A program made the translations under genes and the position numbers. Below the pieces are notes generated by a model that was given only the letters and a program-made list of their open reading frames with translations, made no database searches and was not told the origin of the DNA. Positions 27,877-47,425 of a stretch of DNA of 64,000 nt are shown here, in pieces. The DNA is from an uncultured Poribacteria bacterium (GTDB lineage: Bacteria > Poribacteria > WGA-4E > WGA-3G), in assembly GCA_951828385.1 (NCBI GenBank), contig OX639973.1:5447200-5511199 (forward strand). Direction: 5' to 3'. Each line of letters starts with the position of its first letter. Positions within the stretch are counted from its first letter, which is position 1.

Positions 27877-28917
27877 TTATTGGCTGTAGATCGTTGTTTG
27901 GGGATAGTAGCGTGCCCACGCGAACCAATAGATATTGACAGCAGGTAACCGTTCCAGACGCGTCCCTTTTTCTTTACCGGATGTTGCCTCACCTGTGACA
28001 GTATTCCAACGCGTGCCGGTGTTATCCTCTACAAAGTGTCCCTCTTGCGGACTAAAGGTCCGCACATCCTTCGCTACGTTCCGCTTAAAAACAGCCGTTG
28101 CGAACGATACTTTATCGTGAAAAATTAGCAGCGGCACTTCACCAACCATATCGTTAATTACGGTAGTTTCAGCGAAGTGTGTTAATGGGTACGCACGGAA
28201 CTGCGTGTTACCGCCTTTCGTCTCTACTTGAACACCAATCACAAGCGATTTATTCGGGAGTCTGTCATCGGTGTATTCCGTTCCACTTACACCGGTATCT
28301 TGGCTGGTGTGATACCGCTGATATGAGTCACGGCTAAGACTTTCGCGCATACCATCTCTAAACGGAACTGAAAGCACGCTTGTATTCGGATAATTTGTCT
28401 GCCATGTTTTCCACGCAATCTGTGGCATGGAGACGAGCAACTTCAACCGCTTACCCTTCAGGGGTCCCTGTATCGCTTCTCCAGTGATATGTGACCAGAG
28501 GGAACGGGTCTGATGGTCGTACATTAATAGCGCGTCCCGCCACAACTTACCGCTCACACCGAAAGTATAGGTCTTACCGTCAAGGTCCCGGCTATACACG
28601 ATAGCCGTTTTGCAGAGCGGTCACCACGTCGTGGCGATGTTCAGTCCACCGACAACGTCGTTAACGATTTCGTGTCCATTAAGGAGATAAAGCGAATAGG
28701 CGTGGCTTTCGTCGTTGAAGGTTACGCCGATGACGGGGGCGTCCGGGTCTAATTTTGCGGCACCGGCAGAAACGAATTGGGGTTCAGTAATCGCGGGGAT
28801 CGCATCAAAGGGCAGTAGAGTACGGATTTTGTCGCCGCTGTAATCCGCCGGATCTTCAGCACTTGCACAGGAGATGGTGGCAAATAGGAGTATGAGAATG
28901 AGCATGTAGTTTTTCAT
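27877..28917 (-). CDS. DUF3179-family protein with an in-frame TGA at a conserved Cys position (candidate selenoprotein)
   Basis: The 346-residue reading frame (counting the TGA) is uninterrupted except for one TGA at 28623-28621. Codons before it encode a signal peptide or lipobox (MKNYMLILILLFATISC) and the DUF3179 N-terminus, including VIGVTFNDESHAYSLYLLNG and EIVNDVVGG. Codons after it continue in the same frame as PLCKTAIVYSRDLDGKTYTF, then FGVSGKLWRDALLMYD and SLWSHITGEAIQG. The family motif here is normally a CPLC-type CxxC, so TGA replaces the first Cys, giving [TGA]-P-L-C. A hairpin follows at SECIS-like spacing. If TGA is decoded as selenocysteine this is an exported redox-type selenoprotein; otherwise it is a nonsense-mutated gene. 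AAGGAAAA precedes the ATG. Confidence 0.7.
28589..28607 (-). promoter_or_regulatory. SECIS-like hairpin just downstream of the in-frame TGA
   Basis: On the minus strand, CGGCTAT-CGTGT-ATAGCCG forms a perfect 7-bp stem with a 5-nt loop. The stem begins 13 nt after the TGA and the loop begins 20 nt after it. Bacterial SECIS elements are hairpins directly 3' of the UGA, with the apical loop usually about 16-37 nt away and a G among the first loop bases; this one fits. It overlaps codons for the conserved TAIVYSR block, so chance pairing is possible. Confidence 0.45.
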
Positions 28918-28973: not shown

Positions 28974-29399
28974 CTATATCGGGGGGTGTTCTTGTGCAAG
29001 TTGTAACAGTCTTCTGCGATTAACATGTTCAGGGCGATTCATATTCAAAGCATCTACTGTAGCTCTGCCTGTTCGCGTGCGTCCGATAATATAAAGAAAG
29101 TTTTCACTCCACGTAAAATGCCGTTTCCATTGTTTGAATCGCGGATTAAAGAGTGGGACATTTCGACCTGTCTGTGAATCACGTGCATATGTTTTGGTGT
29201 GTTTGTGTGTATTGCACCATGGACATGCCCATGCCAAATTAGTTAATTCGGTTTTTCCGCCTGCAGTTCGTGGAAGAATGTGGTCACAGTGAAAGGAAGC
29301 ATTGCTAACCTTGTCAGGAGATTGGCAGTACTCACAAAGCCCGTTTGCACGCTCTTGCACGCGACGGCACAGCGCAGCTGGGATAGACTCAGAAGGCAT
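28974..29399 (-). CDS. HNH endonuclease
   Basis: 141 residues. The zinc/HNH module is clear: GLCEYCQSP, then FHCDHILPRTAGGKTELTNL with the catalytic His, an Asn in NLAWACPWCNTHKH and a second CxxC. The C-terminal tail is basic. Such stand-alone HNH proteins act on DNA in mobile elements, restriction or repair. Its start overlaps the end of the upstream small gene by 11 nt, so the two are coupled. Confidence 0.85.
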   Translation of the reverse strand: MPSESIPAALCRRVQERANGLCEYCQSPDKVSNASFHCDHILPRTAGGKTELTNLAWACPWCNTHKHTKTYARDSQTGRNVPLFNPRFKQWKRHFTWSENFLYIIGRTRTGRATVDALNMNRPEHVNRRRLLQLAQEHPPI

Positions 29400-29898: not shown

Positions 29899-30828
29899 CT
29901 AATCCTCTGGTAACGAAACTGATTTTGTTCTTTCAGTCATGATTACATTGAGTATCTCATCAGCAACGAATACACGATTGCGTTGTTGGCCTGTCATTTC
30001 TCTAAGTTTACCCCTTTCAACAAGATAATCCACACCGCGCTGAATAGTAGGAAATGTTGATTTCCATACCTTCACCAATTCTGAGATTGAAATAATCGGA
30101 ATGCCAAACAGATGATCGATTAATAGGTTTACCGCTCTCGGTACCCGTGATCCTGTCGCTATTTCTTTGTATTCTTCTTTTAACGCAAGTAACCGTTGAG
30201 TCGCCAACAAAGCATCTTCTGACTGTTGGCAAATTCCTTGCAAAAAAAATGTGAGCCACGCTTTCCAATCACCTTGTTGGCTTACATTCAACAACAGTTC
30301 ATAGTAAGTATCTCTATGCTCCTCGAAAAAATCGGAGGGGTACAGAAGTGGTTGTGATAACAGACCCCTTTCTATCAACAAAAAAATAATCAAGAGTCTG
30401 CCAATTCTTCCATTTCCATCAACGAACGGGTGAATTGCTTCAAAATGTTGCAGCCTTTTGATTCCATATTCCATCGCGTTAACATAGTTGACGAGTTCTT
30501 GTACGTCAGGTATATGTGGTGATTCGGTTTTATCTGCTTCAAACAGGAAAAGTTGGTCCAAACCGGATTGAGTATTTTCAATCCTGGAACTCATTACGGC
30601 TTCGCGCCGAATAAACGGGCCAATCAGCAAGTGAGGATTTGGCAATAGTTGTCCAGCCCCAGATAACTTTCCAAGTTTGATATTCGCTTCTCAGAGAAGG
30701 TTTGCCAACTCCCAGTCCAATTCGATCTTGGGCGGAAGACGGTTTGGTACATAAGCCCAATATGGATGACTGCCTATGCTACGGAGACATCTGCCAGCAT
30801 TTGAATTTCTAAAATTTTCTGGATTCAT
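29899..30828 (-). pseudogene. Fic-domain AMP transferase gene interrupted by an in-frame TGA
   Basis: A single frame from ATG 30828 to 29899 (309 residues) is crossed by one TGA at 30693-30691 after WELANLL; the next residues are EANIKLGKLSGAGQLLPNPH. The intact remainder has the inhibitory motif SSRIEN, the catalytic HPFVDGNGRIGR and a C-terminal winged-helix-like region (FPTIQRGVDYLVERGKLREM). The expected residue at the TGA is variable in the family (Ser, Arg, Ala), and CGA to TGA is the simplest change. Most likely a nonsense-mutated gene, or internal initiation makes a shorter protein. Intact Fic proteins transfer AMP to target proteins. Confidence 0.75.
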
Positions 30829-30895
30829 TTTTAAATCACTTTACGTTAATAAGAGGATGATGCCTCCTATGTCGGATATGAAGTTCACTTAAGAG

Positions 30896-46653: not shown

Positions 46654-47364
46654 CTAACAAACGGCACAAATATCTCGTACCCGATCAGCCACCTCTGATG
46701 GATGATACAACACTGGATAGCCTGCCGCTCGACGCATCACAATATCCTCTCCAAGTAGGTCTGTGTGCTGACGGAGAAACCACGCGGCGCAAAACGGCAA
46801 CATCCCGACCTGTGCTGCACCTCGAAGTTCGTCGCTATTGCCGTCGCCTATGAATATGCAGTCTGAAGGCGCAACGCCTAAATTCTTACATGCGTGTTGA
46901 TAGATGTCAGGGTCGGGTTTAACCATTCCTACCGCATGAGAGAATATTGTCACTTCAAAAAAGGGTCCCAAAGGGCTATTTGCTCAATCCAAGACTTCAG
47001 AACCATCGGTATTACTGATGAGACCGAGCCTAATACCTGAAGTAGCAATTTCATTGAGCATATCAAGAATTTCGGGTTCTACATGACGCAGATGCACCGC
47101 AAAAGCGGAATGGCGACGCTCAGCGAGTGTCTTAATAGTGTTTTCAGGAGATTTACCGCCAAGCTTCCGAACGATATAACGTAGAGACGCTGCATAGTCT
47201 AATTGTCCTGTACATCGTGCTGGTCGATGATTCACATATTCCCGCTGAAAATTCTCTACAGGCAACTGTAAGGTCTGTGCGACTTCGGTGATTGAAGGGT
47301 GTCCCGCGTCAAATTCTGAGACGAGTGTTTCAAATAAATCAAAGATGACAATCTTCACAGCCAA
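46654..47364 (-). pseudogene. HAD-superfamily hydrolase interrupted by an in-frame TGA
   Basis: From TTG 47364 (AGGAG 7 nt upstream) the frame gives IVIFDLFETLVSEF (nucleophile Asp) and RLGLISNTDGSEVLD, then TGA at 46986-46984. It continues in the same frame as ANSPLGPFFEVTIFSHAVGM, then VKPDPDIYQHACKNL and CIFIGDGNSDELRGA, the remaining HAD motifs. The family normally has Trp here, so TGG to TGA is the simplest explanation. Best read as a nonsense-mutated gene. A paralogue lies immediately upstream. Confidence 0.75.
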
Positions 47365-47425
47365 TTCTAAACTCCTATGTTAATGCTTATTGATGTTGAT
47401 TAGAAGGAATTACAAGACAGACATT

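What the first reader, a model, noticed from the sequence alone, without database searches (positions are those of the whole stretch)
27877..28917. Candidate selenoprotein: DUF3179 protein with TGA at a CxxC cysteine
Seen: one uninterrupted frame of 347 codons with a single TGA (28623-28621); conserved DUF3179 sequence on both sides; the TGA stands where the family has the first Cys of a C-P-L-C motif, so the protein would carry U-P-L-C; a perfect 7-bp hairpin with a 5-nt loop begins 13 nt downstream. Known: selenocysteine often replaces Cys in UxxC redox motifs and is directed by a hairpin just after the UGA. Inference: Sec decoding. Unlike the other TGA-interrupted genes here, TGC or TGT to TGA needs a transversion.
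Basis: partly seen in the sequence, partly recalled or inferred. Interest (0 to 1): 0.85.

Follow-up and report, generated by a model that had tools for sequence, protein, structure and literature searches.

The report
DUF3179 selenoprotein in a Poribacteria relative
This gene carries a deliberate "stop" codon that is read as selenocysteine, giving an exported protein of unknown function with a selenium-containing redox site; the protein family was already listed as a selenoprotein, so the finding is correct but not new in kind.

Summary
Sec decoding is strongly supported. The genome (a Poribacteria relative, one 6.66-Mb contig) has selC, selB, selA and selD, and its selD is itself a Sec gene. 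All 54 close orthologues read keep TGA at this codon. Over 150 homologues in many phyla the position is Sec (99) or Cys (51), never anything else. The hairpin fits the bacterial SECIS model. Synonymous codons in it are almost frozen (diversity 0.085 of expected, against 0.75 gene-wide). Its seven pairs covary across phyla in Sec genes (6.76 of 7 formed) but not in Cys genes (3.12 of 7). Sequencing error, pseudogene or general code change are excluded. DUF3179 has been catalogued as a UxxC/T selenoprotein family since 2007, so this is a new member of a known kind. Extras: the protein is probably exported and is a tandem duplication of one beta domain whose predicted fold resembles Rieske proteins without their ligands; the second Cys is Ala in a few lineages, pointing to the Sec/Cys as the essential residue. 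Its biochemical function is unproven.

The parts
27877..28917 (-). DUF3179 selenoprotein gene, 346 residues with Sec at 99, TAA stop
28621..28623 (-). in-frame UGA, Sec99
   Evidence: TGA in all 54 close orthologues; Sec or Cys in 150 of 150 homologues
28589..28607 (-). bSECIS hairpin: 5' arm 28607-28601, loop 28600-28596 (CGUGU), 3' arm 28595-28589
   Evidence: fits the published bSECIS model quoted
28612..28614 (-). Cys102, second residue of the UxxC motif
   Evidence: replaced by Ala in L108, L110, L113, L114, L142
28855..28917 (-). N-terminal export signal (hydrophobic leader); signal peptide or lipoprotein, exact cleavage not tested
   Evidence: read by eye; homologues carry leaders, lipobox-like Cys or a membrane anchor
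28360..28752 (-). N-terminal beta domain, residues 56-186, carries UxxC
27880..28260 (-). C-terminal beta domain, residues 220-346, duplicate of the N-terminal one without UxxC; Rieske-like predicted fold

Best explanation
The gene encodes an exported selenoprotein of the DUF3179 family. UGA at codon 99 is decoded as selenocysteine by the SelA/SelB/SelC/SelD system, directed by a bSECIS hairpin 13 nt downstream. This step is shown by comparative evidence, not by protein chemistry. Inferred: Sec99 is the reactive redox residue on the outer side of the cytoplasmic membrane and cycles between selenol and a selenenylsulfide with Cys102 (U-P-L-C), held on the first of two tandem beta domains with a Rieske-like fold that lacks the Rieske cluster ligands. 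Because the second Cys can be Ala while the first position is always Sec or Cys, Sec99 is taken to be the attacking residue and Cys102 the resolving one. The substrate and electron donor are unknown. The confidence below is for Sec decoding; I give the redox-pair mechanism about 0.6.
For: Full Sec machinery in the genome: selC, selB beside it, selA, selD, itself a Sec gene with KCAGUASK. TGA at the same codon in 54 of 54 close orthologues in four family-level groups, frame open on both sides. Position strictly Sec or Cys in 150 homologues. Synonymous diversity 0.085 of expected at codons +5 to +10 against 0.75 gene-wide, the lowest stretch in the gene. Hairpin 6.76 of 7 pairs in 79 distinct Sec genes against 3.12 in 51 Cys genes and 4.35 +/- 0.11 in synonymous shuffles. 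Covariation score 0.433 against 0.145 shuffled, 0 of 500 shuffles as high; five of seven pairs change on both sides. Loop G within the first two positions in 79 of 79. Of 69 relatives with a TGA-bearing DUF3179, 64 have selA over its cut-off, 62 have selC and 66 have at least one (tallied). Family already listed as UxxC/T selenoprotein. Function: leader peptides in most homologues, UPLA/CPLA variants, fold.
Against: No peptide or selenium data. Three relatives (G033, G061, G062) have the TGA gene without selA over cut-off or selC; two are incomplete (73 and 83%), but G062 is rated 96% complete. The hairpin of the window alone is not exceptional in energy, and one orthologue (L035) has an internal mismatch. 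The redox role is inferred; no gene neighbour in an operon suggests a partner, and no solved structure shares sequence.
Confidence: 0.94

Rival explanations
1. Nonsense mutation: the gene is a recent or decaying pseudogene, like the neighbouring Fic fragment.
For: Other TGA-interrupted genes lie in the window (HAD at 46657-47379, Fic at 29902-30840).
Against: Same TGA in 54 of 54 orthologues over four family-level groups, with conserved sequence on both sides.
Confidence: 0.01
2. Sequencing or assembly error at one base.
For: None.
Against: Independent assemblies from many species carry TGA here.
Confidence: 0.002
3. UGA is read as an ordinary residue through a changed code or general suppression, or translation restarts at GTG 28599 and makes two pieces.
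For: A mechanical ORF starts at GTG 28599; a hairpin after a stop could in principle favour read-through.
Against: TGA ends 8 of 41 long open frames in the window, so it is a normal stop. The restart would cut a single beta domain in two. A Sec-specific tRNA and SelB are present, and the position swaps only with Cys.
Confidence: 0.03
4. Sec is inserted, but U-P-L-C binds a metal (with the conserved His82) and does not act as a redox pair.
For: His82 is conserved in 90% or more of homologues, 17 residues before Sec99; CxxC often binds metal (general knowledge); the fold resembles Rieske proteins.
Against: The second Cys is Ala in several lineages; the Rieske ligand pattern CxH..CxxH is absent.
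Confidence: 0.2

Closest known systems
DUF3179 selenoprotein family (PF11376, UxxC/T; Zhang and Gladyshev 2007, Olavius algarvensis symbiont, as listed in PMC9312934 and PMC13188914)
   Same: Same Pfam family and UxxC motif.
   Different: Member in Poribacteria, a phylum that no paper held here pairs with the word selenoprotein; the original paper is not held, so site-by-site identity with its sequence was not checked.
Cys-containing DUF3179 proteins (Nitrosopumilus, Chloroflexota, Actinomycetota and others)
   Same: Same domain; CPLC at the same columns.
   Different: TGC/TGT in place of TGA and no hairpin (3.12 of 7 pairs). The residue before the site is usually Tyr or Phe, whereas all Sec forms have Trp.
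Rieske ferredoxin fold (2qpz, 5bok)
   Same: Best predicted-fold match: Foldseek probability 1.00, E 3.6e-3 (5bok); VIA Z 9.7, rmsd 3.2 over 92 residues of the C-terminal half (2qpz).
   Different: No CxH..CxxH ligands; profile comparison with this genome's own Rieske domains finds no sequence relation (probability 0.2 and 3.2%).

Membership tests
bacterial selenoprotein gene | in-frame UGA at a position that is Cys in homologues | tested here: met
   99 Sec, 51 Cys, no other residue
bacterial selenoprotein gene | bSECIS: loop 3-9 nt, stem 4-16 bp, G in first two loop positions, 16-37 nt from UGA, MFE at most -7.5 kcal/mol | tested here: met
   model quoted; here loop 5, stem 7, loop CGUGU, 20 nt from UGA to loop, -9.5 kcal/mol
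bacterial selenoprotein gene | selA, selB, selC, selD in the genome | tested here: met
bacterial selenoprotein gene | selenium in the protein | not testable with these tools
   needs mass spectrometry or 75Se labelling
DUF3179 (PF11376) | Pfam match over the curated cut-off | tested here: met
   262.8 bits against 27
Rieske [2Fe-2S] protein | CxH and CxxH cluster ligands | tested here: not met
   positions 99 and 102 are the only conserved Cys sites; no CxH before them
Rieske [2Fe-2S] protein | Rieske fold | tested here: inconclusive
   top rows mostly Rieske, Z up to 9.7, on the C-terminal half; the N-terminal half was not searched alone because its own model was poor (pLDDT 35)

The most novel reading that the evidence does not exclude
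DUF3179 is a cluster-free, duplicated Rieske-fold protein in which a selenenylsulfide (or a lone Sec in the UPLA forms) on the cell's outer side takes the place of the iron-sulfur cluster as redox centre: a new class of extracytoplasmic selenium oxidoreductase.
Probability: 0.25. Interest if true: 0.6.

Novelty: new member of a known kind. Interest (0 to 1): 0.33.

Why it matters
It confirms a conserved selenoprotein across Poribacteria, and automatic annotation that reads TGA as a stop will cut such genes in two. It also supplies a well-aligned bSECIS with covariation across phyla and a testable active site for a family with no known function.

Tried and rejected
NCBIfam gave no match. Nucleotide search of plasmids gave none. 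No PDB chain shares sequence with the profile. My first idea that UPLC equals the second Rieske ligand motif (CPLH) was not supported: profile comparison with the genome's own Rieske domains found nothing usable, and the weak alignment placed the TG..W..TGEA..G segment, not the UxxC region, near the cluster site. The N-terminal half folded alone without an alignment gave a useless model. The viral structure library gave one match, an uncharacterised Indivirus protein, not followed. The 2007 source paper is not held. A scripted search for the best hairpin reached -7.5 kcal/mol in only 64 of 99 Sec genes, because it extended stems past mismatches; the fixed-position pair count is the better test.

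Full report
Observation. The stretch 28917-27877 on the minus strand is one frame of 346 residues with a single TGA at codon 99 (28623-28621), giving TTW-U-PLC. PF11376 covers residues 38-341 across the TGA with E 5.4e-78. The hairpin lies where stated.

Genome. The window sits in a single 6.66-Mb contig. The nearest named relatives in the public genome collection are Candidatus Poribacteria bins (76-84% identical in the protein). The genome has tRNA-Sec at 592461-592550, 76.4 bits, called SeC with anticodon TCA by ARAGORN; selB directly beside it (592590-594485); selA (603 bits); and selD (363 bits), which itself carries TGA in KCAGUASK. TGA also ends 8 of 41 long open frames in the window, so it is an ordinary stop elsewhere.

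Conservation of the UGA. Of 85 genomes of the phylum searched, 69 hold a DUF3179 with one in-frame TGA (my tally). I read 58 of these at residue level: 54 full genes and one fragment have TWUPLC at the same codon, and three divergent copies (L086-L088) have TWUHLC. Of the 69, 64 have selA over its cut-off, 62 have selC, 66 at least one. The exceptions are G033 (73% complete), G061 (83%, selA in fragments) and G062 (96%, unexplained).

Other phyla. A scan of genome contigs gave 80 loci. With the phylum set this makes 150 aligned homologues (some Poribacteria records occur twice under two names): 99 have TGA and 51 have a Cys codon at this column, none anything else. Sec forms occur in Poribacteria, Chloroflexota including SAR202, Nitrospinota, Acidobacteriota, Methylomirabilota/NC10, Eiseniibacteriota, Marinimicrobia, Rokuibacteriota, Planctomycetota (Anammoxibacter) and one Bacillota bin (titles). 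On a tree built without that column the label needs six changes, where shuffled labels need 37; the Sec forms cluster, with likely reversals to Cys such as in Scalindua. The tree is a quick one and its deep branches are weakly supported.

RNA element. The hairpin meets the published bSECIS constraints (quoted): loop of 5, stem of 7, G at loop position 2, 20 nt from UGA to loop, -9.5 kcal/mol. In the 54 orthologues, synonymous diversity at codons +5 to +10 is 0.085 of expectation; it is 0.75 over the gene, and the lowest windows of the gene all lie here. In 79 distinct Sec genes 6.76 of 7 pairs form; in 51 Cys genes at the same place 3.12; in synonymous shuffles of the Sec genes 4.35 +/- 0.11 with a maximum of 4.72 in 1000. 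On 40 diverse sequences 93.9% of cells pair, five of seven pairs show changes on both sides, and the covariation score is 0.433 against 0.145 shuffled and at most 0.122 for slid structures. This is RNA-level selection tied to the presence of UGA.

Protein. The leader is hydrophobic here and in most homologues, often with a lipobox-like Cys or a membrane anchor (judged by eye), so the protein is probably outside the cytoplasm. The AlphaFold model from 62 sequences is confident (pLDDT 92.4, pTM 0.89). The two halves, residues 56-186 and 220-346, are a duplication (profile comparison 99.9%, E 1e-35); only the first carries UxxC. The best fold matches are Rieske ferredoxins (Foldseek probability 1.00 at E 3.6e-3; Z up to 9.7), but on the second half, and the Rieske ligands are absent. 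I treat this as a resemblance of fold, not membership. In L108 and L142 the motif is UPLA and in three Scalindua it is CPLA: the first position is kept, the second is dispensable. This favours Sec as the reactive residue.

Context. In close relatives the gene stands between a divergent M42 peptidase and a convergent short-chain dehydrogenase. In the window about 2 kb with an HNH gene and a decayed Fic gene separate it from the peptidase. No operon partner suggests a substrate.

Known status. DUF3179 is listed as a UxxC/T selenoprotein family in two reviews (PMC9312934, PMC13188914), both citing Zhang and Gladyshev 2007. No held paper pairs Poribacteria with selenoprotein. The finding is therefore correct and a new member of a known kind.

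Noticed in passing
46657-47379 (-): HAD-like hydrolase with one in-frame TGA at codon 132 (SEVLD*ANSPLGPFF), Pfam match across it; looks like a nonsense change at a Trp codon rather than Sec.
   Followed up: partly
29902-30840 (-): Fic gene with TGA at codon 50 and an apparent internal gap in the Fic domain: decayed. With an HNH gene (28974-29399) it fills about 2 kb that relatives lack between the M42 peptidase and DUF3179.
   Followed up: partly
L108:4040-4987, L142:3992-4948, L110, L113, L114: DUF3179 variants with UPLA or CPLA: the second Cys of the motif is Ala (Anammoxibacter, a Bacillota bin, Scalindua).
   Followed up: partly
all Sec loci against Cys loci: Every Sec form has Trp before the Sec (TWU); most Cys forms have Tyr or Phe (TYC/TFC), a few have Trp.
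   Followed up: no
L021 (genome 1330118-1331041): selD of this genome is itself a selenoprotein gene (KCAGUASK).
   Followed up: yes
G062: Genome rated 96% complete has the TGA-bearing DUF3179 but no selA over cut-off and no selC found.
   Followed up: no
BFVD A0A1V0SD44: An uncharacterised Indivirus ILV1 protein matches the DUF3179 model by fold (E 5.4e-8).
   Followed up: no
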